Positions 10,482 to 31,938 of a stretch of DNA of 32,538 nt are shown piece after piece. Position 1 is the stretch's first letter; each line of letters begins with the position of its first letter. Below the pieces are notes generated by a model that searched no databases, had not been told where the DNA came from, and worked only from the letters and a program-made list of their open reading frames with translations. Made by a program: the position numbers and the translations under genes. Origin of the DNA: Alphaproteobacteria bacterium (GTDB lineage: Bacteria > Pseudomonadota > Alphaproteobacteria > Rhizobiales > Beijerinckiaceae); the NCBI GenBank assembly GCA_016869595.1, contig VGDT01000032.1, forward strand, positions 1 through 32,538. The letters run 5' to 3'.

Positions 10482-10855
10482 ACGCCCGCGCGATCGTGAA
10501 GATCAGCGGGATAGAATCGCCAGTGATAAGGGTGGGCAGTTCATTCGTTAGGGCGCGTCCTTTTGCGCCGCCGGGGTCAAAAAGTCAAGAATTCAATCGA
10601 CAGGTTTCAATCACAGCTTCGCCAATCGCAGGCGCGCGGGCATATTCGCGTTGCTGGAGGAGGCGTCGACGGGCCCCTCGCGGCACGGCCTTCCTCCATG
10701 CGGGAGGCGACGGCGCCGCCGATCCCTTGGCGCGTGGAGCCGTGACTCTCGGCCGAGCGGTCGTTCACAGGCGCCCTGTCCAAAGTGACAGGGTTACTAC
10801 CGCGGCCGCTTCTGCTTCTGTCCGCCGTGCGCAGATTCGCGGCGGGAGAGAGAAA
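10482..10855. other. Divergent intergenic region with a lux-box-like site
   Basis: About 370 bases without a supported gene separate the conserved hypothetical from the first unknown paralog. The main content is the dyad at 10774-10793, annotated separately. A 12-base word, CGCCAGTGATAA, occurs at 10518-10529 and again at 10117-10128, flanking the hypothetical gene. Its meaning is unclear and it could be chance. Confidence 0.45.
10774..10793 (+). promoter_or_regulatory. lux/tra-box-like dyad upstream of unknown paralog 1
   Basis: CCCTGTCCAAAGTGACAGGG has perfect 7-bp arms around six bases. Its 18-bp core is CCTGT-N8-ACAGG, the same geometry as the site before the virB operon and as the Vibrio lux box (ACCTGT...ACAGGT). 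It ends 62 bases before the GTG at 10856, about the same offset as the virB-side site has from its first ORF. This makes a TraR-type activator site plausible. Confidence 0.45.
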
Positions 10856-11278
10856 GTGAACGTCGGCATTCAAAAAAGTCGAAATAGCGATGGGCGACAT
10901 TGGAACATCGAGAAGGCAGACCTCGAAAAAAGAACCATCGAGGCTCTGCAGCGTTATCGCGACGCGTTCGCAAGAGCCACGGAACTGGAGCGGCAGGAGA
11001 TCGCCGCACGTCGGGAGGTATCCAAGAGGCTGAAAGCTCCGATCCCTCGGGTGTCGCCCGCGAGATCGCAACTCATCCAAGCGGGCCAAGCGGCCATTTT
11101 TCGACTGAACCATATCAGGTTGGCCTTGAACGACGGCGCCGCGACGTTGGACTCGGCTTACGAGACCCTCGCCGTCTTGCTTGATGAACTGGGCTACGTC
11201 CCCGTTCAGGCGACGGACGACCAGCAGCGTCGCGACGCCGGAAGCGAATGCGCAATTGACGAAACTGTTCGCCTTTGA
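10856..11278 (+). CDS. Unknown protein, paralog 1 of a local pair
   Basis: The 140-residue product has no recognised domain. It is mostly helical and charged. It shares a clear pattern with the protein at 12705-13076: KAD-EKR--EAL-RYR-A-AR near the N-terminus, GQ-AI-RL---R-A in the middle and LGY-P near the end. The GTG at 10856 is chosen because GGGAGAGAG lies directly upstream and the paralog begins at a similar point. The frame is open back to 10496 but loses protein character. A lux-box-like dyad lies 62 bases before the start. No signal peptide or membrane segment is seen. The function is unknown. Confidence 0.6.
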   Translation: MNVGIQKSRNSDGRHWNIEKADLEKRTIEALQRYRDAFARATELERQEIAARREVSKRLKAPIPRVSPARSQLIQAGQAAIFRLNHIRLALNDGAATLDSAYETLAVLLDELGYVPVQATDDQQRRDAGSECAIDETVRL

Positions 11279-11317
11279 AAGGGACTGAACAAGCACAAAA
11301 TTCAAAAAGGCGAAGCC

Positions 11318-12525
11318 ATGGCCGCCGCTTCCCGCTACCGGTCGCAATCCGGCCCGGCCCTGCTTTCGGCCGGATTTCGGCCGTTCTTCCTCCTCGCGGC
11401 GTCATGGGCGGCTCTGATGGTTCCGATCTGAGTCGCTGTCTTCGCCGGGGTCGGACAGGCGCCGACGGCCTTTTCGCCGTTCGTCTGGCACGCGCATGAA
11501 ATGATCTTCGGCTTCGGCGCGGCGGCCGTCGCCGGATTTCTTCTGACCGCGGTTCCAAATTGGACCGGCCGGCCCCCCATCCACGGTCTGCCGCTCGCGT
11601 CGCTCGCGCTGCTGTGGCTCGCCGGGCGGATCGCCATCTCCTTTTCCACCTGGATCGGGGCGATCGGCGCTTCCGTGCTCGATCTCGCCTTCCCGGCCGT
11701 TTTCCTTTTTGTCGTCATGCGGGAAATCGTCGCCGGCGGGAACTGGCGAAATCTGCCGATTGCCGGTGTTCCCCTGCTGTTCTTGGTCGGCAATCTCCTC
11801 ACCCATTTCGAATCGATTGCGATCACCGAGACGGCGCGATCGGCGCGAGACTGGGCGTCGCGACGCTCTTGCTGCTCGTCGCGCTGATCGGCGGCCGCAT
11901 CACGCCGAGCTTCACGCGCAACTGGCTCGCCAAACAGCGCCCTGATGGCGCCATGCCGGCGTCGTTCGATTTTCTCGACCGCGCCGCGCTCGCCGCGACG
12001 GCGCTCGCCTGCGCGATCTGGGTCGCGGCGCCGGAGGGGATGCTCGCGCCCTGGTTGGAACTCGTCGCGGGCGTGACCCTCGGGCTTCGACTCGCGCGCT
12101 GGCGCGACCAAGCGACGTTGCGCGAACCTCTTCTCTGGGTGTTGCATCTCGGCTACGGCTGGCTCTCGTTCGGATTCTTGCTGCTCGCGCTCAGCGGCCT
12201 CAATCCGGCGCTGCCGCAATCGGCGGCCCTGCACGCCCTCACGGTGGGCGCGATCGGCACGATGACGCTCGCGGTCATGACGCGCGCCTCGCTTGGTCAT
12301 ACGGGCTGCCCGCTCACGGCCGGGCCCGGCACGACGACGATCTACGCGCTCGTGACGCTGGCAACCGTCTTGCGCCTCGCCGCGTCAATTGACGGTTCAG
12401 GATATATCGTGTTCTTGTCTCTCGCTGCGGCCGCCGGGAGCGGCGCCTTCGGCCTCTTCGCGTTGCTCTATGCGAAGCCGTTCATGGCTCCTCGCGTCAA
12501 GGACGAGACCGCGCGCCCGATTTGA
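11318..12525 (+). pseudogene. nnrS: nnrS-family membrane protein, nonsense codon and frameshift
   Basis: Joined frames give an NnrS protein. These are haem/copper-containing multi-spanning membrane proteins linked to nitric oxide tolerance and denitrification. Seen: an N-terminal PALLSAGFRPFFLLAASW, then the family His motif FVWHAHEMIFGFG, then several hydrophobic helices. The C-terminal part has ALHALTVGAIGTMTLAVMTR. Codon 38 is TGA (11429-11431) within MVPI*VAVFAG, where relatives have a tryptophan (TGG). A second lesion near 11835-11845 moves the frame: THFESIAITETA in one frame continues as IGARLGVATLLLL in another. The start ATG is at 11318. Two independent disruptions argue for a true pseudogene. 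It is sandwiched between the two paralogous unknown genes. Confidence 0.85.
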
Positions 12526-12704: not shown

Positions 12705-13076
12705 ATGAGCGAGAAGGCCGATGTCGAAAAGAGAGCCGTCGAAGCCTTGCTGCGTTATCGCGAAGCGCTCGCCAGGGTCGAAGCGCTGGAACAGGAAGAG
12801 GTAGCGGCGTATCGGGCGCTTGTCGAATGGCGCGGTCGCGTCGAAAACTCGATCTTCGACGGCGGCGCTTCGGCCGCCAGATCGAACCTCGTCGAAATTG
12901 GCCAAGACGCCATTTCTCGGCTGCATGACGTGAGATTCGCAATGAGCGAGGCGACGGCGGAGCTGAAATCGGCCTTTACGACCCTTGTCGCCTTCGATGA
13001 TGCCTTGGGCTACCTTCCCATTCCGGAGGCGACTGAATCGAACGTGAAAGGCGCCGGCGACAGCCCGGAAGAATGA
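12705..13076 (+). CDS. Unknown protein, paralog 2 of a local pair
   Basis: The 123-residue product aligns by eye with the protein at 10856-11278 over nearly its whole length. Shared points are EKADVEKRAVEALLRYREAL at the start, VEIGQDAISRLHDVRFAMSE in the middle and DDALGYLPIP at the end. It lacks the first ~17 residues of paralog 1. The sequence is helical and charged, with no signal or membrane segment. The ATG at 12705 follows GGAGAA by about ten bases. No lux-box-like dyad was found upstream, unlike paralog 1. It is convergent with traR. The function is unknown. Confidence 0.65.
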   Translation: MSEKADVEKRAVEALLRYREALARVEALEQEEVAAYRALVEWRGRVENSIFDGGASAARSNLVEIGQDAISRLHDVRFAMSEATAELKSAFTTLVAFDDALGYLPIPEATESNVKGAGDSPEE

Positions 13077-13122
13077 AAGCTTACGGAAGGCGTCTTCAAA
13101 AACAGCCGCCTCTCGCCCTCTT

Positions 13123-13200: not shown

Positions 13201-13926
13201 TTACGGAATCAGGCCTCGCCTTACCGCCAGCGCCACCGTGTGCGTGACGTTCTCGGCTTCGAGTTTGGCGCGCGCATTGTCGAGATGAAAAGCGACGGTG
13301 CGCGGTGTGATGTTGAGAATTTGGCCGGTCTTCTCGATTGTGCGGCCGCGCGACATCCAGGTGAGGCACTGCGCCTGACGCTGGCTGAGCGGGACCGACG
13401 GATCGAGGACGACAGGCGGTCTGAAGGCCGCTTCGACATGGGCGTGGAAATAGGTCCCCATGAGTCGCAAAAGGACCTTCGCCTCCTCGACCCCTTCATA
13501 AAGGTCCGGGCCATGTTTATCGGCCGCGAAAGTGAAGGAGGCGAAGCGGTCGAAGCCGGCCGGGATAGGGATGGTGACGCCTTTGTCGATCCCAAACTCC
13601 GCCGCTTCTCCGAAGAAGCGCTTCTGAATATCGTCTGGCCCCGTCGACGCCTGCGCTCCGCTCCAATGGAAAAGATCGCGATCGCGCCGCGCTCGAATGA
13701 TGACCGGATCGATTTGATCATAGCCTTTCTTGCGATAGCGTGTGGTCCATTCTTTCGGATACGTCGAGATCAACCTGTGGTCGTCGCCCGTGAAGGCGAG
13801 ATAGGCGAACCAACGAAATCCCAATTTCTGAGTGGCCCGCTCGGCGACCGTGCGGAAAGCCAATGTGTCCGACGCCGTGCGCACGCCGTCGATGAATTCC
13901 TGATACGCAATTTCCAGTTGCCGCAT
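13201..13926 (-). CDS. traR: TraR-like LuxR-family quorum-sensing transcription factor
   Basis: The 241-residue product has an N-terminal autoinducer-binding domain (about 15-165). The ligand-pocket pattern of TraR/LuxR is visible: YPKEWTTRYRKKGYDQIDPV followed by FHW, giving the conserved W, Y, D, P and W. The C-terminal HTH (about 178-238) has LSQRQAQCL and TGQILNITPRTVAFHLDNAR. Family members bind an acyl-homoserine lactone, dimerise and activate promoters with 18-20 bp dyads. No luxI/traI synthase or traM antiactivator is in the window. The gene is divergent from the virB operon, and a lux-box-like dyad lies between them. It probably controls conjugation and possibly itself. The start ATG at 13926 follows AAAGGATTT. 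Confidence 0.9.
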   Translation of the reverse strand: MRQLEIAYQEFIDGVRTASDTLAFRTVAERATQKLGFRWFAYLAFTGDDHRLISTYPKEWTTRYRKKGYDQIDPVIIRARRDRDLFHWSGAQASTGPDDIQKRFFGEAAEFGIDKGVTIPIPAGFDRFASFTFAADKHGPDLYEGVEEAKVLLRLMGTYFHAHVEAAFRPPVVLDPSVPLSQRQAQCLTWMSRGRTIEKTGQILNITPRTVAFHLDNARAKLEAENVTHTVALAVRRGLIP

Positions 13927-14088: not shown

Positions 14089-14108
14089 CCCTGTAAAATT
14101 TCACAGGT
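14089..14108 (+). promoter_or_regulatory. lux/tra-box-like dyad between traR and the virB operon
   Basis: CCCTGTAAAATTTCACAGGT has an 18-bp core CCTGT-N8-ACAGG with only one mismatched pair. It closely resembles the Vibrio lux box in its outer arms and in length. It lies 67 bases before the first small ORF of the transfer operon and about 160 bases from the traR start. One site could serve both directions. TraR binding is inferred. Confidence 0.6.
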
Positions 14109-14174: not shown

Positions 14175-14309
14175 ATGCAGGTTATCTCACCCCGCCGCCG
14201 CCATTTCGGCGCTGGCGCCATGACAATCGCCTTCGCGGCGGCCCACGCCGCAGCCGAACTCGACGGTCGGGCCGGCGCCGAGGCGCCCGCGCCGCGCCTC
14301 GTCGGCTGA
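14175..14309 (+). CDS. Small ORF at the head of the transfer operon
   Basis: The frame encodes 44 residues beginning MQVISPRRRHFGAGAMTIAF and ending APRLVG. GGAGAGG stands 8-9 bases before the ATG, a good ribosome site. The short alanine-rich middle is mildly hydrophobic. The stop is 18 bases before the virB1-like start. I recognise no family. It may be a real small protein or a leader peptide linked to operon control. Confidence 0.4.
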   Translation: MQVISPRRRHFGAGAMTIAFAAAHAAAELDGRAGAEAPAPRLVG

Positions 14310-14327
14310 CGCCGCGGAGGCCAAAGA

Positions 14328-14867
14328 ATGGATCTTTCAGCTTTCATGGCGCTCGCCGAGCGCTGCGCGCCCGGCGCCGATGCGCGGCCACTGATCGAGA
14401 TCGTGCGCATGGCGAGCGGTTTCGAGGCTCTTTCGCTCACGATCGACGGCCGCAGGCCGATCAAGATATTGGCGACCTCGAAGCCGGAAGCGATCGAGCT
14501 GGCGATGCAGGCGAAAATCGCCAAACAAGACGCGCGGCTCGGTCTTGCGGGTCTGACCTTCAAAGACCTCGACGAGGCGGGAATCGGCGTCGCGGACGCC
14601 TTCGAACCTTGTCCGGCGCTACGCGCCGCAGCGCGGATTCTCAAAGAGGATCCCAGGCGTTTCGCAATATCGAGAATAGCGCGCGTTCAGAACGAGGCGC
14701 TAGCGAAGCGCCCGGCCGATGGGCCAGATCAGCGCGACGAACGCTCTCATCGCGAAGAGGGCGCGGTCGCGGAGCCAGAAACGGCGTCCCAAAAACCATG
14801 GGACGTATTCGGCAATGCGTCCGGAAAATCGCTCCTCGTCTATGAGGCGTCCACCTCCCGACGGTAA
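14328..14867 (+). CDS. virB1: VirB1-like (degenerate lytic transglycosylase fold) protein
   Basis: The 179-residue product has the family start DLSAFMALAERCAPGA and the later VADAFEPCPALRAAARIL. It ends with the virB1-like tail KPWDVFGN...LLVYEAS. VirB1 proteins cleave peptidoglycan for channel assembly. The catalytic glutamate of the usual VESGF motif is replaced: here the codons give MASGF (Ala29, GCG at 14412-14414). The downstream GLMQIN signature also reads LGLAGLTF. Enzyme activity is therefore unlikely. The start ATG follows GGAGG. The position, directly ahead of virB2, fits the role. It may be a structural relic, with another transglycosylase supplied elsewhere. Confidence 0.75.
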   Translation: MDLSAFMALAERCAPGADARPLIEIVRMASGFEALSLTIDGRRPIKILATSKPEAIELAMQAKIAKQDARLGLAGLTFKDLDEAGIGVADAFEPCPALRAAARILKEDPRRFAISRIARVQNEALAKRPADGPDQRDERSHREEGAVAEPETASQKPWDVFGNASGKSLLVYEASTSRR

Positions 14868-14915: not shown

Positions 14916-15212
14916 ATGATGCGTCCCTTCGCTCGTCGTCTCTCCTTCCTCCTCCTCGCCGGCGCCCTTGTCACGCTCGCCCTCGACGAGCCCGCGCTAG
15001 CGCAAAGCGCCAATGTCGAAAGGGTTCTCCAGAACTTCGTCGATGCGCTCACCGGCAATGTGGCAAAGCTGCTCGCGACGCTCGCGATCATCATCACCGG
15101 CATGACTTGGATGTTCGGTTATCTCGACTTGAGGCGCGCCGGCTACGTCATTCTCGGCGTCGCCATCCTGTTCGGCGCCGCGGAAATCGTCACGACGCTG
15201 ACCGGCAAATGA
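14916..15212 (+). CDS. virB2: VirB2-like major pilin (TrbC/VirB2)
   Basis: The 98-residue product has a signal sequence (MMRPFARRLSFLLLAGALV, cleavage probably after PALA-Q). Two hydrophobic helices follow around residues 43-64 and 72-94, the hallmark of TrbC/VirB2 pilins. The mature pilin forms the conjugative pilus and channel. Length is normal for the family. It sits between the virB1-like gene and virB3, seven bases before the latter. The start is at the first of two ATGs. Confidence 0.9.
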   Translation: MMRPFARRLSFLLLAGALVTLALDEPALAQSANVERVLQNFVDALTGNVAKLLATLAIIITGMTWMFGYLDLRRAGYVILGVAILFGAAEIVTTLTGK

Positions 15213-15219
15213 GCGCGCT

Positions 15220-15555
15220 ATGAGCAGCGAACACTTCGTCGAGGACACTCTTTTTCTGGCCTGCACGCGCCCTGCGATGATTCTCGGCGTGACGATGGAG
15301 GCCATGGGCCTCAACGTCATCTTCTCGTCGATCCTGTTCGTGCTGGCGGGCAGCCTCCTCTATGGCCTCGTCGCTCTGCCGATCCATTTCGCCTGTCGGC
15401 TCATTTGCCGGCGCGACGCCAACCAGTTCCGAATTATTTTCGCCTGGTTCGAAACGCGGGGCCGCCATCGCAACGCGAGCCTTTGGGGCGGCTCCTCCTG
15501 CACGCCGTTGCGCCTCGCGCGCCGCTTCAGCGCCGAGGAGGTCGCCCATGGCTAG
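15220..15555 (+). CDS. virB3: VirB3 inner-membrane T4SS component
   Basis: The 111-residue product opens with the VirB3 pattern (DTLFLACTRPAMILGVTMEA). A strongly hydrophobic region follows at about residues 28-60, then a short cytoplasmic tail. VirB3 is an inner-membrane partner of the VirB4 ATPase and is needed for pilus assembly. The gene overlaps virB4 by eight bases (ATGGCTAG), indicating translational coupling. Length and position are typical. Confidence 0.9.
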   Translation: MSSEHFVEDTLFLACTRPAMILGVTMEAMGLNVIFSSILFVLAGSLLYGLVALPIHFACRLICRRDANQFRIIFAWFETRGRHRNASLWGGSSCTPLRLARRFSAEEVAHG

Positions 15556-17920
15556 CGTAGCTGCGCGCGTCAAGGCGCGAGAGATCGAAGCGAGCGTTCA
15601 CCTGCCCTATCTGAGGCACGTCACAGAGCACGTGATCTCGCTGTCGACGCGCGCGCTGGTCACCACGATCCGTCTTGGCGGCGTCTCCTTCGAGACGGCC
15701 GACGCCGCCGATCTCAACGATCTCCACGCCAAACTCAACTTAACGCTGCGCAACGTCGCCGACGAACGGCTGGCGCTGTGGACGCATGTCATCCGCCGGC
15801 GAGCCACCGATTATCTTGAGGGCGTGTTTCGCTCGGACTTCGCCCGCAAACTCGACGAAGCCTATCGCACACGTCTCGTTTCCGAGATGCTCTATAGCAA
15901 CGAGCTTTATCTGACCCTGGTCTGGCATCCGGGACGCGACGCGACTGAGCGCGCCTCGCTGTTCTTTTCGCGCCTCGCGCGCGCGGAGCGCGCCGGCGCG
16001 GAAGTCGACGCATTTGGGCTAAAGAAGCTCGATGACGTGACGCGCGATCTGATCGCGGCGCTCGATCGCTACCGCCCGCGCCGCCTCGGTCTCGTCCAGC
16101 GGTATGGCGTCGTCTTTTCCGAGACCGGCTCCATCTTGCAGGAGCTCGTCGCCTGTGAGCGCCTACCCTTCCCGCTCGTCCACGGGCCAATCGGGCCGGC
16201 GCTTTACGCCAACCGCTTGATCTTCGGGCGCGAGACGATCGAAATCCGCGGCCCCGGCGGTTCGCGCTTCGCCGGCATGTTGGCGTTCAAGGATTATCCG
16301 GCGACAACCCGGCCCGGCCTCCTCGACGGTTTTCTCGCCGCCCCCTTCGAGCTCGTGCTCGCGCAGAGCTTCGCTTTCCTCGACAAATCGGAGGCGAAGA
16401 CCGTCATGACGCGCAAGCAAAACCAGCTTCTCTCGGCCAACGATCCGGCGGCTTCGCAAATTGGCGAACTCGACGCGGCGCTCGACGATCTCGAATCGAA
16501 CCGCTTCGTGATGGGCGAACATCACCTGTCGCTCCTCGTCCTCGCCGACGAACCGAGGGCCCTGCTCGACAAGATGAGCCAGGCGCGGCGGATTCTCGCC
16601 GACGCCGGCGCCGTGGTCGCGCGCGAGGACCTCGGGTTAGAAGCGGCCTTCTGGGCGCAATTGCCGGGACTGTTCAAATATCGGGCGCGGGCGGGCGCCA
16701 TCACCTCGCGCAATTTCGCTGGCCTGTCGCCCTTTCACGCCTATCCTTCGGGCAAGGCGGAGGGCAATCATTGGGGACCTTCCGTCGCCGTCCTCAAGAC
16801 CGCCTCGGGTTCGCCGTTTCATTTCTCGTTCCACGTCGGCGATCTCGGCAACACCTTCATCTGCGGCCCCTCCGGCTCGGGCAAGACCGCGTTCCTGACC
16901 TTCGCCTTGGCGCAGGCCGAGAAACTCGACTGCCAGCTGGTGCTGTTCGACAAGGATCGCGGCGCCGAACTCTTCGTTCGGGCGATCGGCGGTTCTTACC
17001 TCACCCTGAAGAGCGGCAAGCCAACGGGCTGCGCGCCCTTGAAGAGCTTCGATCTCACTCCGTCCAATCTCGCCTTCCTTGGCGCGCTCGTGCGCAAGCT
17101 CGTCAGCGTCGAGGGCCGACCGCTGTCGGTCGCCGACGAGCAGAGAATCGATAACGGCCTCTTGGCGCTGCGCGACATGCCGCGCCATGAGCGCTCCTTC
17201 TCGACGCTGCGCGTGTTTCTCGGCCAGCGCGACACCGAGGGAATCGGCGCACGTCTCGAACGATGGTGCAGGGGCGGCGCGCTTGGATGGGTTCTCGACG
17301 CCGACGAGGACGCGATCAGCATCGATTCGCACGCCTTCGGCTTCGACATGACCGAGGTGCTGGATGATCCGATCATCCGCACGCCGCTGATGATGGTGCT
17401 GTTTAGGCGGGTCGAGGAATTGATCGACGGACGCCGCATCGTCATCGCCATCGACGAATTTTGGAAGGCGCTCGGCGACGAAGCCTTTCGCGATCTCGCC
17501 AATGACGGGTTGAAGACGATCCGCAAGAAGAACGGCGTCATGGTGTTCGGCACGCAATCGCCGCGCGACGCGCTTGTCTCGCCCATCGCCCACACCATCG
17601 TCGAGCAATGCCCGACGCAAGTTTTCTTTCCGAACGCGCGCGGCCAGGCGCGTGACTATGTCGACGGCTTTCATCTCACCAAAACGGAATTCCGGTTGAT
17701 CCGCGAAGAGCTTTCGACCGAGAGCCGCCGCTTCCTCCTGAAACAGGGTCACGACGCCGTGGTCGCCGAGCTCGACCTCAAAGGAATGGACGATGCGCTC
17801 GCCATCCTTTCCGGTCGCACGGCGACCGTCGAGCTTGCCGATCGCTTGCGTGAAGAGGTCGGCGACAATCCGGCCAAATGGCTCCCGATCTTCCATCAGC
17901 GCCGAAAGACTCTCGCATGA
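15548..17920 (+). CDS. virB4: VirB4 T4SS ATPase
   Basis: The 790-residue product is a VirB4/TrbE-type ATPase. Walker A GPSGSGKTAF lies near residue 443 and Walker B IVIAIDEFWKAL near residue 635. A later FGTQSPRDAL block is also family-typical. It energises pilin extraction and substrate passage at the inner membrane. The ATG at 15548 overlaps the virB3 stop; the upstream extension of this frame lies inside virB3 and is not coding. The stop overlaps the virB5 start as ATGA. The gene is intact and of normal length. Confidence 0.95.
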   Translation: MASVAARVKAREIEASVHLPYLRHVTEHVISLSTRALVTTIRLGGVSFETADAADLNDLHAKLNLTLRNVADERLALWTHVIRRRATDYLEGVFRSDFARKLDEAYRTRLVSEMLYSNELYLTLVWHPGRDATERASLFFSRLARAERAGAEVDAFGLKKLDDVTRDLIAALDRYRPRRLGLVQRYGVVFSETGSILQELVACERLPFPLVHGPIGPALYANRLIFGRETIEIRGPGGSRFAGMLAFKDYPATTRPGLLDGFLAAPFELVLAQSFAFLDKSEAKTVMTRKQNQLLSANDPAASQIGELDAALDDLESNRFVMGEHHLSLLVLADEPRALLDKMSQARRILADAGAVVAREDLGLEAAFWAQLPGLFKYRARAGAITSRNFAGLSPFHAYPSGKAEGNHWGPSVAVLKTASGSPFHFSFHVGDLGNTFICGPSGSGKTAFLTFALAQAEKLDCQLVLFDKDRGAELFVRAIGGSYLTLKSGKPTGCAPLKSFDLTPSNLAFLGALVRKLVSVEGRPLSVADEQRIDNGLLALRDMPRHERSFSTLRVFLGQRDTEGIGARLERWCRGGALGWVLDADEDAISIDSHAFGFDMTEVLDDPIIRTPLMMVLFRRVEELIDGRRIVIAIDEFWKALGDEAFRDLANDGLKTIRKKNGVMVFGTQSPRDALVSPIAHTIVEQCPTQVFFPNARGQARDYVDGFHLTKTEFRLIREELSTESRRFLLKQGHDAVVAELDLKGMDDALAILSGRTATVELADRLREEVGDNPAKWLPIFHQRRKTLA

Positions 17921-18627
17921 AGCCCTCCGCCCGAATTCTCAATGTCGTGATCATGGCCGCCCTGCCCTTTTCGGCCTCGGCCCAGGTCGTGTTCGATCCG
18001 AGCGTCTTCGCTCGCCAACTCGACCAATTGATCGAAATGAAAAAGCAGGTCGAGACGCTCACTTCGCAGCTCAAAGTCGCGCAGGATCAGCTCACCCAAG
18101 CGAAGCAGCTCTATGATTCCTTCAACAAACTCACGAACGCCAACGACGTCGCGGGCCTCCTGAACTCGTCGGAATTCCGCAAATATCTACCGGGGGAATT
18201 CTCGCAAATCGAGGGCGTCATCAAGGGATCTGGGTCGGGAAGCTTTGCTTTTTCGATCGACAGCTATTTGGCGCAGAACCGCGTCTACACGGAAAACCCG
18301 GGCAATTCTTTCTATGCCTCCGAGCTCGATCGCATCGCCCGCCAAACGGGCGCCAAGCACTCGCTCGGACAAGCCGTCTACGACACGGCCTCCCGCCGCG
18401 TTGACCAGCTCGAGGAATTGCGCCGCCAGATCAGCGCCTCCAAGGACGCCAAGGAAGTGCTCGATCTTTCCGCGCGCCTGCAGGCCGAACAGGCGCTGCT
18501 GCAAAACGACGTGCTGCGCCTGCAAGGCCTCGCCATGATTCAACGCGCGCAAGCCGACATGGACGTCCAGCGCGAACACGAACGACGCCGACAGACGATC
18601 GATGAAATGAAGGCCGCCCTCCAATGA
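17917..18627 (+). CDS. virB5: VirB5-like minor pilin/adhesin
   Basis: The 236-residue product has a cleavable signal peptide (MKPSARILNVVIMAALPFSASA). A long helical coiled region (LDQLIEMKKQVETLTSQLKV and later QLEELRRQISASKD) is typical of VirB5/TrbJ. These proteins sit at the pilus tip and may contact recipients. The ATG overlaps the virB4 stop (ATGA) and the stop overlaps eexN by four bases. Identification rests on shape and operon position as well as sequence. Confidence 0.85.
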   Translation: MKPSARILNVVIMAALPFSASAQVVFDPSVFARQLDQLIEMKKQVETLTSQLKVAQDQLTQAKQLYDSFNKLTNANDVAGLLNSSEFRKYLPGEFSQIEGVIKGSGSGSFAFSIDSYLAQNRVYTENPGNSFYASELDRIARQTGAKHSLGQAVYDTASRRVDQLEELRRQISASKDAKEVLDLSARLQAEQALLQNDVLRLQGLAMIQRAQADMDVQREHERRRQTIDEMKAALQ

Positions 18628-18905
18628 AGACGCTCATCTCGACACTGCTGATCGCAACGTGCCTCGCGGGATGCGATAACGGGCCCCGCTCTTCCGACGC
18701 TGCGTCGAAGACGGCGTCAGAGGTCCACGACGTGGCGTGGTATCTCGAGCATGAGGTTGAGCACGACGAAACCAAGCGGCGATGCAAGGCCAATCCGGGA
18801 GCGCGACGCGACACGGCGGAGTGCATAAACGCCGATCAAGCGCAAAAGCAAATTTTCGTCTGGGGGCGCGAGGAAGCCCTGCGTCGCTCGCGTGAAGGCC
18901 GCTGA
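18624..18905 (+). CDS. eexN: EexN-like entry-exclusion lipoprotein
   Basis: The 93-residue product begins MKTLISTLLIATCLAGC, a clear lipobox with the lipid-bearing Cys at residue 17. The mature part has EVHDVAWYLEHEVE, then RRCKANPGARRDTAECINAD. This is the EexN pattern with its conserved cysteine pair. EexN proteins block redundant mating into cells already carrying the same system. The position between virB5 and virB6 is standard for this T4SS class. It overlaps virB5 by four bases. Confidence 0.85.
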   Translation: MKTLISTLLIATCLAGCDNGPRSSDAASKTASEVHDVAWYLEHEVEHDETKRRCKANPGARRDTAECINADQAQKQIFVWGREEALRRSREGR

Positions 18906-18907
18906 TC

Positions 18908-19891: not shown

Positions 19892-19935
19892 CGGAATTCC
19901 ATCATCCCGAACTTCCCTAAGATTTCGGAGACGAA

Positions 19936-22982: not shown

Positions 22983-24052
22983 GCGGCGATGACGCGGCCG
23001 TTCTCGACGATTTTTTGGCGCGCGATGGAACGGATGAGGAAGCGCAGTCAGGGGAGCGGCGCGTTCTGCTGCGCTTTCTCGAGCCGATTGCCGATCTTCT
23101 CGCCGAACCCAACCTGACGGAAATCGTCGTCAACCGGCCCGGCGAAGTCTTCACCGAAGGCCCCGAGGGCTGGACGCGCCATGAGCGCAGGGGCCTCGCC
23201 TTTTCGCATTTGATGAATCTCGCGACCGCCGCCGCGGCCTTCACCCGCCAGGATATCGCTTCCGACCATCCGATCGTTTCGACCGTGCTGCCAGCCGGCG
23301 AGCGTTGCCAGATCATCGCGCCGCCGGCGGTTCCGGCGGGGACGGTGAGCCTTACGATCCGCAAGGTGGCGGCGGTGACGATGACCCTCGACGAGTTCGA
23401 CCGTCGTTCGCTCTTTGCCGATGTTCGCCAGGCGAGCGACGAGCTCTCGGCCGACGAGCAGGAGCTCGTGCGGCTCAGAGACGCGGGCCAATGGCGCGCC
23501 TTCCTCGAACGCGCCGTCGCCGGCCGCCGCAATATCGTCATTTCCGGGGCGACGGGATCGGGCAAGACGACGCTCGCCAAGGGCCTCGTCGCGCTGATTC
23601 CCGACCATGAACGCATTCTCACGATCGAGGACACAGCGGAACTCACCATTCCGCAGCCCAATCATGTCCGCCTGCTCTACGCCAAGGATGGCTCGGGCGT
23701 CGCAAAGATCGGCCCGCGCGAATTGCTGGAATCGGCTTTGCGCATGCGCCCCGATCGCATCCTGCTGCAGGAACTGCGCGACGGCACGGCCTTCTACTAT
23801 CTGCGCAATGTGAACTCGGGGCATCCGGGTTCGATCACCACGGTCCATGCCGATAGCGCACGGCTCGCTTTTGAACAGCTGACCCTGCTCGTCAAGGAAA
23901 GCGCCGAGGGGCGCGAGCTCGCCCGCGAGGACATAAGGCGGCTCCTCCATCTCACCATCGACGTCGTGGTGCAGATGTCTCGCCGCGACGGCCGCTACCG
24001 CATCACGGAAATCCATTATGATCCCGAGGCCAAGCGCCGCAATACGTTCTGA
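22979..24052 (+). CDS. virB11: VirB11 secretion ATPase
   Basis: The 357-residue product is a VirB11-family hexameric ATPase. The N-terminal domain has LAEPNLTEIVVNRPGEVF. Walker A GATGSGKTTLAKG lies near residue 191 and Walker B RPDRILLQELRDG near residue 260. The His box GHPGSITTVHADS is near residue 281. It powers pilus formation and substrate transfer with VirB4 and VirD4. The gene is intact and overlaps virB10 by four bases. Confidence 0.95.
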   Translation: MSGDDAAVLDDFLARDGTDEEAQSGERRVLLRFLEPIADLLAEPNLTEIVVNRPGEVFTEGPEGWTRHERRGLAFSHLMNLATAAAAFTRQDIASDHPIVSTVLPAGERCQIIAPPAVPAGTVSLTIRKVAAVTMTLDEFDRRSLFADVRQASDELSADEQELVRLRDAGQWRAFLERAVAGRRNIVISGATGSGKTTLAKGLVALIPDHERILTIEDTAELTIPQPNHVRLLYAKDGSGVAKIGPRELLESALRMRPDRILLQELRDGTAFYYLRNVNSGHPGSITTVHADSARLAFEQLTLLVKESAEGRELAREDIRRLLHLTIDVVVQMSRRDGRYRITEIHYDPEAKRRNTF

Positions 24053-24116
24053 AGGGCAAGCCGCGAAAATTGTCGCCGCCCTCATGAAGATCGCGTCCCG
24101 AGGCGGAGCAAGCGCC

Positions 24117-26144
24117 ATGATCCATTCGAAGCTGACCGACTCTTGGCGGCGCCTCGCGCTTCCCGTCGGTCTTTCTTTCCTGGCGGTCGCGATCTTTCTC
24201 CTCGTCGCATCGAACGTGTCGCTGCTCGGCCTGCGCGCGCATAACGGCTGCTTTCATATTTTCGATATTCTGACGCTGGCGGGGCATTTCGGGAGCGACA
24301 AGCGCCTCGACCGCTGGTTGACCATCGGCGTCCTGGCCGGCGCCATCGCGACATTCGGCCTGCTCGGCGCGATCTTGCGCGCCCGGCCGCGACCGCTGCA
24401 CGGCGACGCACGCTTCGCCACCTCGCGCGAGATCGAGCAGGCCGAGTTGCGGGCGAAAAACGGTTTGCTGCTCGCCCAGACCAACGGCAGGCTCCTGACC
24501 TTCGGCGGCGCGGAACATGTGATCGTCTACGCCCCCACGCGTTCCGGCAAAGGCGTCGGCGTCGTCATTCCCAACCTCCTCTCGTGGAGTGACAGCGTCG
24601 TCGTCCTTGACGTCAAGAAGGAGAATTTCGTCAAGACGGCGGGATTTCGCGCCGCGCATGGACAAAAGGTGCATCTCTTCGATCCGCTCGACCCGGAAGG
24701 CCGCACGGCGCGCTACAATCCGCTCTCTTCCGTGCGCCGTGATCCGGCCGACCTTTACGACGATCTGCAAAGAATCGCCGGCATGTTGTTTCCGCCGGAT
24801 CCGCGCGGCGACCCGTTCTGGACGGAAGCGGCGCGTTCGGCATTCATCGCCGTCGGCGGCTACGTCGCCGAAACCCCGCAGCTTCCCTTCACCATCGGCG
24901 AAATCCTGCGCCAGCTGACAGTGGCGAGCGACGTAAAGGCGCATTTCGAAAGCGTCATCAGCGCGCGAAGGACAGGGCCGGAGCAACTCTCGGCTCTTTG
25001 CGTCGCCGCGCTCAACGATTTTCTAGCCGCTTCGGAAAACACACTGCAATCGGTGCGCAAGACCGTCACCGCGCGCTTGGGGTTGTGGCTCAATCCGCGC
25101 ATCGACGCGGCGACTTCGGCGAGCGATTTCGATCTGAGCAAACTACGGTCCGAGGCAATCTCGATCTATCTCGCGGTCACGCCCGACAATCTCGATCGGT
25201 TGGCGCCGCTGCTCAATCTCTTCTTCCAGCAGGTCGTCGATCTCAACGCCCGAGAACTGCCCGAGCACAATCCGGCGTATTCGCGCCAGCTGCTGTTGCT
25301 TCTCGACGAGTTTCCCTCACTCGGCCATGTCGGTGTGCTCGCAAAGAGCGTCGCTTTCGTCGCGGGATTCGGCGTCAGGCTCCTGACCATCCTGCAGAGC
25401 CCCTCACAATTGCGCGCGATCTACGGCGCGGACGAGGCCAAGAATTTCTTGACCAATCACGCCGTCGAGATCGTCTTTACGCCCAAGGAGCACGATGTCG
25501 CCGTGGAGCTCTCGGAGCGCTTCGGCACGCAGACCGTCGAGGCGAAAAGCCGCTCGCGGCCTTGGGGCTTCTCCAACCGCGCCCGCTCCGAGACGGTCTC
25601 CGATCATCGGCGTCCCCTCCTGCTGCCGCAGGAATTGAAACTCGTGCCCAAAAGCAAGGCCTTCGTGCTAATGGCGGGCGTGCCGCCGATCCTTGCCGAC
25701 AAGCTCGTCTATCATGAAGACCGCCGCTTCACCGCGCGCCTCGCCCCGCCTCCGATCATCGAACCGATGTTGGCGCCGACGCATACGGTGCTCGCTTCGC
25801 AGCTGCTGCAATTGATGCAGGACGTCGCGGAATTGCGCGCGATTGTCGTCCGCAGGCCCGTGAGCGAGGCGGAAATCGACGATCCGGCGTCGATCCCCGC
25901 GGACGCGCTGTCGAACCTTGCCGATGTCCCGCTCGATCTGGAAAACGTCTCCGAAGAAAAACTCAACGCTTGGGTGTCGGGCTATATCGACGGCGCCGCG
26001 CGCTATGGCGAGGTCTCGGAAGCAATTGAGCCGAGCGAGAATTCGGAAGCCTCCCGGCCGGACGAAGCCGAAGACGCGCGAGCCAAGGGCGCATCGGGGC
26101 GCGGCCAACGGCGCAAGCGAAGTCGGGAAATGAGCCGTGGCTGA
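24117..26144 (+). CDS. virD4: VirD4/TraG coupling protein
   Basis: The product (675 residues from this start) is a type IV coupling protein ATPase that brings the relaxosome to the channel. Seen: two N-terminal membrane helices (LALPVGLSFLAVAIFLLVA, then LTIGVLAGAIATFGLLGAIL). Walker A is APTRSGKGVGVV and Walker B is LLLLDEFPSL. The ATG at 24117 has GGAG at a suitable distance and leaves a short cytoplasmic N-terminus. Alternatives are ATGs at 24018 (overlapping virB11) and 24084. The C-terminal tail after about residue 560 is acidic and variable. It overlaps the LPD7 gene by eight bases. Confidence 0.93.
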   Translation: MIHSKLTDSWRRLALPVGLSFLAVAIFLLVASNVSLLGLRAHNGCFHIFDILTLAGHFGSDKRLDRWLTIGVLAGAIATFGLLGAILRARPRPLHGDARFATSREIEQAELRAKNGLLLAQTNGRLLTFGGAEHVIVYAPTRSGKGVGVVIPNLLSWSDSVVVLDVKKENFVKTAGFRAAHGQKVHLFDPLDPEGRTARYNPLSSVRRDPADLYDDLQRIAGMLFPPDPRGDPFWTEAARSAFIAVGGYVAETPQLPFTIGEILRQLTVASDVKAHFESVISARRTGPEQLSALCVAALNDFLAASENTLQSVRKTVTARLGLWLNPRIDAATSASDFDLSKLRSEAISIYLAVTPDNLDRLAPLLNLFFQQVVDLNARELPEHNPAYSRQLLLLLDEFPSLGHVGVLAKSVAFVAGFGVRLLTILQSPSQLRAIYGADEAKNFLTNHAVEIVFTPKEHDVAVELSERFGTQTVEAKSRSRPWGFSNRARSETVSDHRRPLLLPQELKLVPKSKAFVLMAGVPPILADKLVYHEDRRFTARLAPPPIIEPMLAPTHTVLASQLLQLMQDVAELRAIVVRRPVSEAEIDDPASIPADALSNLADVPLDLENVSEEKLNAWVSGYIDGAARYGEVSEAIEPSENSEASRPDEAEDARAKGASGRGQRRKRSREMSRG

Positions 26145-26990: not shown

Positions 26991-27021
26991 GCCTATCCTA
27001 AGCACAGAAGGTCGCTCGAAA

Positions 27022-27967: not shown

Positions 27968-28134
27968 TTCAATCCCAGCTTTGGGGCCCAGGCGGCGTTA
28001 ACTTGAAGGCCGTCCATGGCTTTGCGTAATTTCGTCAACGACGCAAAGTGAAGCAGGACGCAGACCGGCACGCCGAACACGGGCATCAACACTAACGGGA
28101 ACCGCGCTTCAATATAGCTCGCAGACCGACTCAC
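27968..28134 (-). other. Possible membrane-protein remnant coupled to the relaxase gene
   Basis: A GTG at 28134 overlaps the relaxase stop by four bases (GTGA). It opens a frame beginning MSRSASYIEARFPLVLMPVF and continuing with a strongly hydrophobic helix (FGVPVCVLLHFASLTKLRK). After about 45 residues the frame runs through the palindrome and antisense to the RES toxin as far as 27610, losing protein character. It could be the 5' part of a small membrane gene cut off when the toxin-antitoxin pair arrived. Low confidence. Confidence 0.35.
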
Positions 28135-29177
28135 CTCTCCGATCTCTCCCCTCCCCTTTCCTTGTCTTTTCGACGCTGCGGCGGCTGGGGCTTGCCGATG
28201 GCCTTGGCGAGCTCTTTCAAGAGCCGATCGCGTTTCGTTTCGAACTCGGGCATGCCGGCCGCAAATTGCAACACTTGGGCTGCCAAATTGCGGTCGGCCG
28301 CGCTCGCAGAACGCTTTAACTCCTCGGCTTGCCGTCGATAGGCTTCCTTGATCGCGGCCTGCCTTTCTCGTGTCTTCGTCTCCCAAGGGCGCGCCGCGCT
28401 TTTCCCGACGCGCGCCTCCCTCACGATCTCTTCGCGGGCGAGACGCTCCACGCGCGGTTGCTCGCCACGCTCCCTGACCACGCGAACAACGCCCCGTTCC
28501 GTTTTTCGGACCTTCCCGCGCGCGCGGCGCGGGGTCGCCTCCGCCTCGACGCCGCGCAATCGCAATTCGCCGGCGAAGAGCTCGCGCCACGATGCAAGAT
28601 CGGCTTTACGCGGATTGAGCCGCTTGCCGTCATGACCGAGCGAGCGCACCGTCAGATGAACATGGGGATGTTCGTCTTCGACGTGTTGCACGAAAACGTA
28701 ATCGCGCCGACCGCCGAAGGTTTCCATCGCGAAGGCGCGAACCGCATCCTTCACGGCGCCCGGGTCCGTTCCCGGCGGCATCGAGAGGACGATGTTATGG
28801 GAGAGCGGCCCGTCTCGGCGCCGGCCCTCGTCGAGCTCGGCGTCATGGGCCCATTGCGCTTGGATGTCGCGCAAGCCTTGCCGCCCTTCCATGACGGCGC
28901 CGGTCTCCGTTTCCGCCGCCAGCTCGCCGTCGCGAGTGATATATTCCAGGTGCGATTTCAGGTGGCCGACGGTCTTGGTCTTGCCGGTGATCTTGACCAT
29001 CACCTCCGGCGCCTTGGCGACGATCCGCTGCAACTTGGCCCGCATGGCGGGCGTGAGCCTTCGCGGATCGGCGGGATCCGGAATCTCCCACTCGGAACGC
29101 TTTGGCTTTCGGACCGGCGTTTGCCAGACATAGGAGATTGACGGCAGTTCGAGGTCGTTATCTCCCTCGCCGCTCAT
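28131..29177 (-). CDS. MOBP-type relaxase (VirD2-like)
   Basis: The 348-residue product is a relaxase/mobilisation nuclease. Seen: motif I LKSHLEYITRDG with the probable catalytic Tyr79, and the metal-binding motif EDEHPHVHLTVRS with His170, His172 and His174. The C-terminal third is basic and helical. The enzyme nicks one strand at oriT and pilots it through VirD4. The ATG at 29177 is preferred because it overlaps the mobC stop (TGATG); the ATG at 29192 lies inside mobC. Unlike many relatives it has no C-terminal LPD7 domain, which is encoded separately at 26137-26955. It is transcribed with mobC and away from oriT. Confidence 0.9.
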   Translation of the reverse strand: MSGEGDNDLELPSISYVWQTPVRKPKRSEWEIPDPADPRRLTPAMRAKLQRIVAKAPEVMVKITGKTKTVGHLKSHLEYITRDGELAAETETGAVMEGRQGLRDIQAQWAHDAELDEGRRRDGPLSHNIVLSMPPGTDPGAVKDAVRAFAMETFGGRRDYVFVQHVEDEHPHVHLTVRSLGHDGKRLNPRKADLASWRELFAGELRLRGVEAEATPRRARGKVRKTERGVVRVVRERGEQPRVERLAREEIVREARVGKSAARPWETKTRERQAAIKEAYRRQAEELKRSASAADRNLAAQVLQFAAGMPEFETKRDRLLKELAKAIGKPQPPQRRKDKERGGERSER

Positions 29178-29695
29178 CAACCGCCCTCCCAATAATCGGC
29201 GTTCCGTTTCAGCGCCGCGCGCAGTTCGGCGAGCGCGCCCTCGATCCGCGCCGAAGCCTCGCGGATCGCCGCGGCCTCGATCTTCACCGTGCGGCCAATC
29301 AGCCGATGGAGATTGGCGGCGTGGGCGATCTGATTGATGTTGCCGCCGATGCGGTTCAGTTCGCGCGCCACCGCTCGCAGCGCCTGGCGTTCGTCATGCG
29401 TCTGCTGCACCGGCGAGCCGAGCCGCGCCCGCACTATCGACGCGATCCATTGCGTGCGGTTCATGCCGCGCCGCGCAGCGACCGCCGCGAGCAAGCGCAA
29501 CTCGCTTTCGCGTAGTCTGATCGTCACCTTGCAGGACGGACTCGTCGCCATCGTCTCATGCGCCGGTGACTTCCTGTCGCCGACCGTCTGTTCCACGAGC
29601 CGCCGCATCAGCGCCGATTTGCCGCCCTCGTTCGCCGCCATCGCCGCGAATTTTTCAGCGAGCGCATCGTCGATATGAAACCCCAGAAACGCCAT
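29177..29695 (-). CDS. mobC: MobC-like relaxosome protein
   Basis: The 172-residue product combines an N-terminal ribbon-helix-helix-like segment (MAFLGFHIDDALAEKFAAMA), a second RHH-like block (KVTIRLRESELRLLAAVAAR) and the bacterial mobilisation MobC signature (ELNRIGGNINQIAHAANLH). MobC proteins bind oriT and help the relaxase open the strands. The ATG at 29695 is preferred over a TTG at 29716, as neither has a strong ribosome site. It is coupled to the relaxase through TGATG. The predicted nic site lies about 60 bases upstream of the start. Confidence 0.9.
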   Translation of the reverse strand: MAFLGFHIDDALAEKFAAMAANEGGKSALMRRLVEQTVGDRKSPAHETMATSPSCKVTIRLRESELRLLAAVAARRGMNRTQWIASIVRARLGSPVQQTHDERQALRAVARELNRIGGNINQIAHAANLHRLIGRTVKIEAAAIREASARIEGALAELRAALKRNADYWEGG

Positions 29696-29720
29696 GGGTT
29701 TGCTTTGTCCACTCAAAGGG

Positions 29721-30010: not shown

Positions 30011-30012
30011 TG

Positions 30013-30038: not shown

Positions 30039-30048
30039 CGACAAATCC

Positions 30049-31050
30049 TCACGGGAGAGGTGATGCTTCTATTCGCATCTCGATAAGCGCGAGCTCGGAG
30101 AGCGACACATCGGCTTCGTCGTCACGCTCGTCGAATGCGACGAGCGCAAAGTGCGACCCTCTTTTCGAAACCCGCCCAAGAACTAAGCGACCGCCTCTTT
30201 GCTCATGGCGGACACGTACGACGACCTCGGATGAAGATTTTCGTGGCGCCGCCGGAGCGACCTCGCCCGTGGGCAGCCCTCGTGCGTCCTTTTTCGAGGC
30301 CTCCTCTACCCGCTGAAGCTCAAGATTTTCCGGGCGGAAATTCCGATCTGTCGACAAATCTGCTTTGTCGTTATCGTTTGGCTTGGCAGATGCTCCCTCG
30401 ATGAACGCGTCGGCTTGCGGACGTGTAAAAGATTGATGCCGCGCGCAGAATTCCTCGACGCTTGCCGCGTCTCGCTTCCACAGCTGATAGAGTTCATAGA
30501 CCGCCCGAAGCGGCGACGTTGAAAGCTTATCGCGCAGAACCTTCGGCATCTGCCCGACCGATGCGTACATGGCGACAAAGCCCTTGCTCTTGGCGAGGCG
30601 TCTGGCGATGTCCTTTTGCTTCTCGCCAGCCTTGAGTCGCCCTTCGATGAAAGCGGCGATCTCCGTTGGCAAAAGATCGTCGCGCTGAATGTTTTCGACC
30701 ATCTGATCGTATGGATCGCCGGCCTGCCCTGGCTGAATGATCGCCTTGATGGTCGTCAGACCCGCAATATTCGCCGCGCGAAATCGGCGCGCCCCGAAGA
30801 CGATGCGATGCTTGCCGTTTTCTTGCTTTTCGGTGACGCCGATCGGTTGGAGTAGGCCTCGCTCGCGGATCGAACCGGCCAACTCCTCGAGAGCGGCCTG
30901 GTCGAAATTGCGCCGCGGCTGTCCAGGGTCTTCTTCGATCAGGCTCAGGGCGATTTCGAGGGGCGCCCCACTGGAGCCGATGGGCGGCTCAAGGCCCTCG
31001 AGATGATCGAGGAGCGCCGCGACATCATCGAGTTTTTGTGCGTAACTCAT
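30049..31050 (-). CDS. parB: ParB/KorB-like partition protein
   Basis: The 333-residue product has a ParB N-terminal domain (ALSLIEEDPGQPRRNFDQAA, then GARRFRAANIAGL and MVENIQRDDLLPTEIA). A KorB-like HTH region follows (QKDIARRLAKSKGFVAMYAS). The C-terminal ~60 residues resemble the KorB dimerisation domain (RGGRLVLGRVSKRGSHFALV). Such proteins bind centromere sites and also repress plasmid promoters. The start ATG overlaps the parA stop as ATGA. Candidate binding palindromes lie upstream of parA at 31950-32261. It is separate from the larger ParB-like protein at 2916-4859. Confidence 0.92.
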   Translation of the reverse strand: MSYAQKLDDVAALLDHLEGLEPPIGSSGAPLEIALSLIEEDPGQPRRNFDQAALEELAGSIRERGLLQPIGVTEKQENGKHRIVFGARRFRAANIAGLTTIKAIIQPGQAGDPYDQMVENIQRDDLLPTEIAAFIEGRLKAGEKQKDIARRLAKSKGFVAMYASVGQMPKVLRDKLSTSPLRAVYELYQLWKRDAASVEEFCARHQSFTRPQADAFIEGASAKPNDNDKADLSTDRNFRPENLELQRVEEASKKDARGLPTGEVAPAAPRKSSSEVVVRVRHEQRGGRLVLGRVSKRGSHFALVAFDERDDEADVSLSELALIEMRIEASPLP

Positions 31051-31796
31051 GAAAGCTCCATTTTGGCGGCGAGTTTGTCGAAGACGATCCGCATTTCGCG
31101 ACCGGCCTCGCGGGCGGCCGTCTTGGGAAGGCTCCAGACGGGTTTCTTCTCCGCCAGAGCCTCGCCGATGGATGAGCGCTGCGGGATCACGCCGTCGAAG
31201 AGATATTTCGTGCCGAACTTCTGGACGAGGTTCTTAAGATTGTTGCGCTGGCGCGGCGAGGTCGTCTGAAGGCGGTTCGGGATCAAGCCAAGAAAGGTGA
31301 GCCCGGGATTGTACTTCTGCCTGACGCCGACCATATGTTTTAGGAGCGTCTCGATCCCATCGATCGCGTAATCGTCGAGGTCGATCGGCGCCAACACGAA
31401 ATGGCCGGCGATCAACGCAGCGAGATTGCGCACGCCGAAGGTCGGCGGCGTGTCGATCACCGCGACATCATAGGCGCGCGAGGCATCCTCGAGATTCGAA
31501 CGAAACTGCTGAATGAGCTTTCCGTCGACCGTGAGAATTCCGCGTAAGGCCGGAGTGGCGGGCGCGACGCGGATGCCTGGCGCCGACAGCGGCGGCAGGG
31601 CGACCGGCCGGGCGAAGAAGGCGGCGGCCGCGGGCTCGCCGATCTGCGCCGAGAGCGTCGTCGTGCCATTGCTCTGCGGGTCCAGATCGAGAAAGAGGAC
31701 GCGCTTACGATGCTCGGCAAAATACCAGGCGAGGTGAACGGCGATCGTGCTCTTTCCGACGCCGCCCTTCTCGTTGTTCACGACGATCACTTTCAT
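31047..31796 (-). CDS. parA: ParA-family partition ATPase
   Basis: The 249-residue product is a Walker-type ParA. The deviant Walker A is KGGVGKSTIAVHLAW at residues ~9-23. FLDLDPQSNGT and VAVIDTPPTFG follow, typical of the family. It lacks a long N-terminal HTH, so autoregulation probably falls to ParB. The ATG at 31796 is chosen because the ParA fold starts at once (MKVIVVNNEKGG); the upstream frame to 31895 is unlike the family. It drives plasmid positioning with ParB. A lux-box-like dyad stands 124 bases upstream. Confidence 0.93.
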   Translation of the reverse strand: MKVIVVNNEKGGVGKSTIAVHLAWYFAEHRKRVLFLDLDPQSNGTTTLSAQIGEPAAAAFFARPVALPPLSAPGIRVAPATPALRGILTVDGKLIQQFRSNLEDASRAYDVAVIDTPPTFGVRNLAALIAGHFVLAPIDLDDYAIDGIETLLKHMVGVRQKYNPGLTFLGLIPNRLQTTSPRQRNNLKNLVQKFGTKYLFDGVIPQRSSIGEALAEKKPVWSLPKTAAREAGREMRIVFDKLAAKMELS

Positions 31797-31920
31797 GAGA
31801 CGGCTCCAGTCCAAGCAACGAAGAGCATGCAGAGGCCCTCCCAGTTCGAGGCATTTGATGCTCGACGAATCCGTCGCCGAATCACTGCGACACAAAAAAC
31901 AAATTCAACGGGCCTTGCCG

Positions 31921-31938
31921 ACTGTGAGATTTCACAGG
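31921..31938 (-). promoter_or_regulatory. lux/tra-box-like dyad upstream of parA
   Basis: On the minus strand the core reads CCTGTGAAATCTCACAGT, that is CCTGT-N8-ACAGT, one base off the pattern at 14090 and 10775. Read on the plus strand it matches the virB-side site at 15 of 18 positions. It is 124 bases ahead of the parA start. In Ti plasmids TraR activates the rep/par genes, so the location is meaningful. Confidence 0.5.

What the first reader, a model, noticed from the sequence alone, without database searches (positions are those of the whole stretch)
10774..31938. Three lux/tra-box-like dyads suggest a TraR regulon joining transfer, partition and an unknown protein
The pattern CCTGT-N8-ACAGG occurs at 10775-10792 and 14090-14107, and with one mismatch at 31921-31938. 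All three are intergenic, and each stands 62-124 bases before a gene: unknown paralog 1, the virB operon and parA. The arms match the Vibrio lux box. The virB and parA copies agree at 15 of 18 bases. Ti plasmids are known to couple TraR to tra and rep genes. A partition operon plus an orphan protein under one such regulator would be new for this plasmid class.
Basis: partly seen in the sequence, partly recalled or inferred. Interest (0 to 1): 0.75.

Follow-up and report, generated by a model that had tools for sequence, protein, structure and literature searches.

The report
TraR–TraM regulon on a Methylocystis plasmid
A plasmid of a methane-eating bacterium appears to place its DNA-transfer machine, a partition operon and possibly its own off-switch under one quorum-sensing-type regulator, much as Ti plasmids do, but with no signal-making gene beside the regulator and with the partition genes next to the transfer genes.

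Summary
The three dyads are real, intergenic and above chance in strict form. The contig is inferred to be Methylocystis plasmid DNA. Its regulator (13201-13926, -) is TraR-like. The two "unknown paralogs" are TraM-like antiactivators, so the targets (transfer, traM, partition) repeat the Ti TraR regulon. The virB box is present (up to 2 mismatches) in 12 of 12 full-length clade-A relatives including this one. Before parA, at -114 to -146, a box with up to 2 mismatches is in 16 of 22 Methylocystis genes and 0 of 6 from other genera; with up to 3 mismatches in 22 of 22 and 1 of 6. Two box types (CTGTG..CACAG and CTGTC..GACAG) change together at virB and parA, and mostly follow the regulator residue equivalent to Ti-TraR Arg206 (Ala against Lys/Arg). 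The traM1 box is of the second type although the window's TraR is of the first; the same genome holds parts of a second, type-B TraR system. No luxI was found beside traR in the Methylocystis plasmid regions examined, whereas Bradyrhizobium relatives have it there. A new variant of a known kind: virB plus parAB well supported, traM1 uncertain. No binding or expression was tested.

The parts
13201..13926 (-). traR-like LuxR regulator (clade A)
   Evidence: Pfam Autoind_bind 8.1e-28 and GerE 1.4e-11; PDB 2q0o TraR 2.4e-35, 1h0m TraR 1.9e-25
14090..14107 (+). lux/tra-type box before the virB operon, CCTGTAAAATTTCACAGG
   Evidence: up to 2 mismatches in the same place in 12 of 12 full-length clade-A loci (this one included); ten of the twelve aligned
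31921..31938 (-). box before parA; in parA orientation CCTGTGAAATCTCACAGT
   Evidence: at -114 to -146 in Methylocystis parA genes, 13 of 22 at up to 1 mismatch, 16 at up to 2, 22 at up to 3
10775..10792 (+). box before traM1, CCTGTCCAAAGTGACAGG (C..G type)
   Evidence: among 25 TraM loci scanned, only G203 and G212 have a like box
10856..11278 (+). traM1, TraM-like antiactivator
   Evidence: Pfam Prok-TraM 1.9e-5, above cut-off; family profile against annotated TraM, E 1.7e-6
12705..13076 (+). traM2, TraM-like antiactivator, convergent with traR, no box
   Evidence: Pfam Prok-TraM 0.0075, below cut-off; member of alignment A1; same convergent order as annotated traR/traM
14328..14867 (+). virB1-like gene, first of the virB operon
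   Evidence: NCBIfam VirB1 4.1e-6, far below its curated cut-off
14916..26144 (+). virB2 to virB11 and virD4 genes
   Evidence: tblastn matches under annotated virB/virD4 genes of M. parvus and M. rosea
28131..29716 (-). MobP1/VirD2-type relaxase and MobC
   Evidence: below curated cut-offs; annotated relaxase and mobC in relatives
30049..31050 (-). parB, KorB-type
   Evidence: ParB_N 2.4e-20, KorB 3.4e-12
31047..31796 (-). parA
   Evidence: AAA_31 2.9e-29
31948..32254 (.). three copies of a different palindrome, about AAGTTTGYCNGACAAACTT, possible ParB sites
   Evidence: ParB role inferred

Best explanation
The dyads at 14090 and 31921 are operators of the plasmid's own TraR-like regulator. 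A TraR dimer, probably bound to an acyl-homoserine lactone made elsewhere, binds them and raises transcription of the virB/virD4 transfer operon and of parAB, so that transfer and partition rise together. TraM2, convergent with traR, and TraM1 bind TraR and keep it off until a threshold is passed; the box before traM1 probably adds feedback. Shown here: the sites, their conservation, covariation and gene context. Inferred: binding, activation, ligand and TraM action.
For: Regulator and antiactivator identity. Co-occurrence in 39 genus genomes: TraR in 15, ParA in 15, 14 shared; TraM in 16, including all 15 with TraR. virB side: box within 2 mismatches in 19 of 22 LuxR loci, the three misses being truncated matches; at up to 1 mismatch spacing N8 gives 15 of 22 loci, other spacings 3-14 give 0 or 1. 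parA side: at up to 1 mismatch spacing N8 gives 13 of 28 loci, N4 gives 3, the other spacings none; 13 of 22 Methylocystis loci have it inside -146..-114 and 0 of 8,800 positions elsewhere in those regions do (the interval was set after seeing the hits). The box ranks 1 of 283 windows in both parA alignments (11 of 15 clade-A and 7 of 7 clade-B loci used) and 7 of 313 at virB (10 of 12 loci used). virB and parA boxes change type together. In Bradyrhizobium BTAi1, B. septentrionale and G052 the dyad sits between luxR and luxI. Residues aligned with TraR Tyr53, Trp57, Tyr61, Asp70 and Trp85 (ligand-pocket positions recalled) are kept in the alignment.
Against: No binding or expression data. The core motif is not enriched genome-wide (23 against 22). 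Six of 22 parA boxes have 3 mismatches, a level that also occurs by chance (20 of 8,800 other positions, and G298 among the six outgroup genes). The traM1 box is of another type, and most traM genes scanned have none (3 of 25 with a box at up to 2 mismatches, two of them near-identical). No luxI found in this genome (the search does find luxI in relatives), so the ligand is unknown. Loci share ancestry, so the A/B covariation is few evolutionary events.
Confidence: 0.77

Rival explanations
1. The dyads are operators of the plasmid's ParB/KorB-type protein, which, as KorB does on RP4 (recalled), represses both partition and transfer promoters.
For: ParB carries a KorB domain and one site lies beside parA.
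Against: Other palindromes near parA change with the ParA/ParB lineage (AAGTTTGTC..GACAAACTT; AGTTTGCCC..GGGCAAACT; GTGGTTTGAACCAC), while the dyad keeps its outer arms; the third palindrome occurs in three parA regions of G252 and G276 that lack the dyad. Not every region shows such a palindrome (none in L126, L130; only the dyad in L100). The dyad also sits between luxR and luxI in relatives.
Confidence: 0.08
2. The virB and parA boxes belong to TraR-A, but the traM1 box belongs to the type-B TraR of a co-resident plasmid, so TraM1 is switched on by the other plasmid.
For: The traM1 box is C..G type, 16 of 18 identical to the G200/G211 type-B virB box. The own genome holds type-B virB, traM and box contigs, and C107 begins inside a type-B TraR. 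G203 has the same arrangement plus a truncated Arg-type LuxR about 4 kb away.
Against: Only two independent traM boxes; box type may not decide binding; the window's own virB box is A..C, not G..C.
Confidence: 0.25
3. The dyads are chance or relics without function.
For: The core motif is at background genome-wide; in MJC1 the TraR frame is broken yet the box remains.
Against: Fixed position, spacing and conservation above flanks in many plasmids.
Confidence: 0.05

Closest known systems
TraR/TraM/TraI regulon of Agrobacterium Ti plasmids (PMC3907764, passages seen)
   Same: LuxR-type activator; 18-bp inverted-repeat boxes before transfer, traM and rep/partition genes; TraM antiactivator
   Different: Box is of lux type (CCTGT-N8-ACAGG); transfer is a virB/virD4 system with a MobP-type relaxase; the boxed partition operon is a separate parAB beside the relaxase; no luxI next to traR
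Bradyrhizobium plasmids pBBta01 (NC_009475) and pBs5S5a (NZ_CP147713)
   Same: luxR beside virB1-virB11-virD4 genes, dyad of the same spacing before the operon
   Different: luxI lies first in the operon; regulator residue is Lys and the box C..G type; regulator about 42% identical
Rhizobium favelukesii pLPU83a (PMC13055273, abstract seen)
   Same: TraR-dependent transfer without an AHL synthase gene on the plasmid; TraM present
   Different: Control by RcgA/RcgR, which were not sought here; the parAB arrangement was not compared
pAt15955/pTi15955 dual TraR systems (PMC7856919, abstract and passages seen)
   Same: Two TraR systems in one cell with distinct box consensus; regulators differ at residues 206 and 210
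   Different: Both have traI; no box of one system on the other plasmid's traM is described in the passages seen

Membership tests
TraR (LuxR-type conjugation regulator) | Autoinducer-binding plus GerE HTH domains, best solved relatives TraR | tested here: met
TraR (LuxR-type conjugation regulator) | NCBIfam TraR equivalog cut-off | tested here: not met
   126 bits against cut-off 250; so called TraR-like, not a TraR equivalog
TraR (LuxR-type conjugation regulator) | AHL-dependent DNA binding and activation | not testable with these tools
   needs biochemistry
TraM antiactivator | Prok-TraM profile | tested here: met
   traM1 25.4 bits over cut-off 22.2, traM2 17.1 below it; 19 of 25 family members match at E up to 0.05; no NCBIfam match for either
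TraM antiactivator | Profile match and C-terminal LGYIP motif of annotated TraM | tested here: met
   hhalign probability 90, E 1.7e-6 for this one comparison with four annotated TraM; LGYVP aligned with LGYIP
TraM antiactivator | Fold of solved TraM | tested here: inconclusive
   two long helices predicted; listed fold matches are generic hairpins, none a TraM; profile search of PDB sequences gave no TraM
TraM antiactivator | Binds and inhibits TraR | not testable with these tools
   needs biochemistry
Ti-type TraR regulon | Boxes before transfer, traM and rep/partition genes | tested here: met
   but a traM box in only 3 of 25 TraM loci scanned
Ti-type TraR regulon | traI/luxI AHL synthase on the plasmid | tested here: not met
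   none beside traR in the Methylocystis plasmid regions examined; none found in this genome
KorB/ParB operator | Dyad sequence and presence tied to the ParB lineage | tested here: not met

The most novel reading that the evidence does not exclude
The plasmid's antiactivator gene traM1 carries an operator of another plasmid's specificity: a type-B TraR from a co-resident plasmid would induce TraM1 and so silence this plasmid's (or both plasmids') transfer. One recognition-helix residue (Ala or Lys at the Arg206-equivalent) and box positions 6 and 13 would set which plasmid listens to which.
Probability: 0.22. Interest if true: 0.72.

Novelty: new variant of a known kind. Interest (0 to 1): 0.52.

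Why it matters
It extends TraR/TraM control, best known from Agrobacterium and rhizobia, to plasmids of methane-oxidising bacteria. It ties a stand-alone partition operon to conjugation, and offers a natural set of paired regulators and boxes in which a one-residue specificity code can be tested. Searches of the open-licence library, judged by titles and starts of abstracts, showed no paper on such a system in Methylocystis.

Tried and rejected
Looser motif: up to two mismatches is not above chance in the window. The core motif is not enriched genome-wide. The exact match at C23:8574 lies in what I read by eye as the signal peptidase gene (no family search) and is taken as chance; the contexts of the other chromosomal core matches were not examined. 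ParB operator: rejected as the main reading. RepABC control on the same plasmid: no box within 2 mismatches in about 450 bp before repA of M. parvus or MJC1. Box before traM2: none within 2 mismatches. No TraM appears among the listed fold matches. Palindromes before annotated rhizobial traM genes gave nothing useful. A first reading that the genome has a single TraR was corrected. The Fisher value for residue against box used only concordant loci and is not relied on; one search repeats it with the one exception in the Lys/Arg class (11 of 12 C..G against 0 of 11 Ala/Ser/Val; the Tyr locus left out), still on related sequences. TraM locus L153, a 39-residue fragment, was left out of the 26 matches.

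Full report
What was checked. Exact matches: 2, against 0 in 300 dinucleotide shuffles; core CTGT-N8-ACAG: 3, with 0 of 300 shuffles reaching 3; the shorter TGT-N8-ACA is not significant, 40 of 300. Spacing N8 stands out within the window. Two cautions: hits with up to two mismatches are not above chance, and the core is at background across the 3.28-Mb genome, 23 against 22 for the reversed control. The strict form is 5 against 1. Four of these five stand before traM1, virB and the parA genes of contigs C63 and C101; the fifth lies in coding sequence by eye.

What the genes are. The window is a whole contig (C32). Two same-genus genomes hold contigs of the same length as the Methylocystis parvus and Methylocystis sp. 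MJC1 plasmid records, and the nearest named regulators are on Methylocystis plasmids; genus and plasmid nature are inferred from this. The regulator has Autoind_bind and GerE domains, and its best solved relatives are TraR of 2q0o and 1h0m. It falls below the NCBIfam TraR equivalog cut-off, so I call it TraR-like. The predicted fold, two long helices, is compatible but not diagnostic, and a profile search of PDB sequences found no TraM.

Co-occurrence. In 39 genus genomes TraR (E up to 1e-40) is in 15, ParA (E up to 1e-40) in 15 and TraM (E up to 1e-4) in 16. TraR and ParA share 14; all 15 with TraR have TraM (Fisher values, not corrected for relatedness).

The virB box. Within 450 bp upstream of luxR, a box with up to two mismatches is found in 19 of 22 LuxR loci examined; the three without (L120, L122, L123) are truncated matches. 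All 12 full-length clade-A loci have it. In an alignment of ten of those twelve (two near-duplicates left out) the box ranks 7 of 313 windows for conservation. In Bradyrhizobium BTAi1 and septentrionale and in genome G052, the dyad lies between luxR and luxI, and a virB1-like gene follows luxI. In the Methylocystis plasmid regions examined no luxI was found in that slot. LuxI genes occur elsewhere in 27 of 39 genus genomes, and in 12 of the 15 with TraR; none was found in this genome, G135 or G220.

The parA box. Of 22 Methylocystis parA genes found (15 clade A, 7 clade B), 7 have a box without mismatch at -114 to -146, 6 with one, 3 with two and 6 with three. Six parA genes from other genera (G298, G052, three of G252, G276) have none there at up to two mismatches; at three, G298 has two. 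In the same upstream regions of the 22, positions outside that interval give 0, 3 and 20 of 8,800 at up to one, two and three mismatches; the interval was chosen after seeing the hits. Spacing control over all 28: up to one mismatch, N8 in 13, N4 in 3, other spacings from 3 to 14 in none. The box is the best-conserved window, rank 1 of 283, in alignments of 11 of the 15 clade-A and 7 of the 7 clade-B regions. Separate palindromes that change with the parA/parB lineage lie near most of the parA genes, which argues against the dyad being the ParB operator. In M. parvus the plasmid also has a repABC operon, with no box before repA; so the boxed parAB, next to mobC and the relaxase, is a second partition system or part of the transfer module. 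On contig C63 of this genome the boxed genes are parA-parB-repC, nearer to the Ti case.

Two box types. Clade-A plasmids have mostly CTGTG..CACAG-type arms at virB and parA; clade-B plasmids (TraR 42-46% identical) have CTGTC..GACAG or a near form at both. The recognition-helix residue aligned with Ti-TraR Arg206, a primary base contact according to PMC7856919 (passages), is Ala in 11 of 12 full-length clade-A proteins and Val in one (a truncated one has Thr), and Lys in the clade-B proteins. Of the 48 LuxR loci examined, 22 have a neighbouring box at up to one mismatch: Lys/Arg 10, of which 9 are C..G (exception L031, A..G); Ala/Ser/Val 11, of which 10 are G..C (the window's own virB box is A..C); one Tyr locus (L015) is G..G. 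Three more have only two-mismatch hits that fit neither type (L010, L014, L029), and 23 have none under that filter, four of which (L109, L110, L112, L113; Ala) have two-mismatch G..C boxes. Two Bradyrhizobium plasmids with Lys are C..G. The sequences are related, so this is a lead, not a proof.

The traM1 box. It is C..G type, 16 of 18 identical to the clade-B virB box of G200 and G211, though the window's TraR is the Ala type. Of 25 TraM loci scanned only three have an upstream box at up to two mismatches: this one and the near-identical G203 and G212, where it lies at a similar distance and is also C..G type beside an Ala-type TraR. The own genome carries type-B transfer genes (C66, C107) with a type-B virB box, and C107 starts inside the N-terminus of a type-B TraR, so the earlier count of one regulator is an assembly effect. 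Hence either TraR-A reads this box weakly, as Ti traM has a mild promoter with its own tra box (PMC3907764, passages), or TraM1 answers to the other plasmid's regulator.

Judgement. Control of virB and parAB by the plasmid's TraR-like protein is the best explanation (0.77 for the model as stated; the traM1 step is its weakest part). The mended outgroup count does not change these odds, since the stricter levels carry the argument. It works like the Ti TraR/TraM circuit. It differs in box type, in the missing luxI beside traR, and in a parAB placed with the transfer genes. TraR working without a plasmid AHL synthase has a precedent in pLPU83a (PMC13055273, abstract). Literature searches, judged from listings, showed nothing on this in Methylocystis.

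Noticed in passing
26974-27914: Xre/MbcA-type antitoxin (just below the Pfam cut-off) and RES-domain toxin pair between the transfer genes and the relaxase.
   Followed up: no
11560-12525: NnrS-like gene lies between traM1 and traM2; MJC1 has a traM1 remnant just before traM2.
   Followed up: partly
14175-14309: A 44-codon ORF between the virB box and virB1; G135 has a shorter one in the same place (read by eye). It may be a leader peptide or chance.
   Followed up: no
L056 18333-20016 (Methylocystis sp. MJC1 plasmid): Decayed copy of the regulon: TraR frame interrupted, traM1 a remnant, no virB gene of this type found beside it, yet the dyad is intact.
   Followed up: partly
G000 contigs C32, C63, C88, C101: Four related parA genes in one genome, each with a box (two A type, two B type), suggesting several related plasmids in one strain.
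   Followed up: partly
L054 116-3147 (G000:C63): Transposition-like ORFs beside the boxed parA-parB-repC cassette (by eye only).
   Followed up: no
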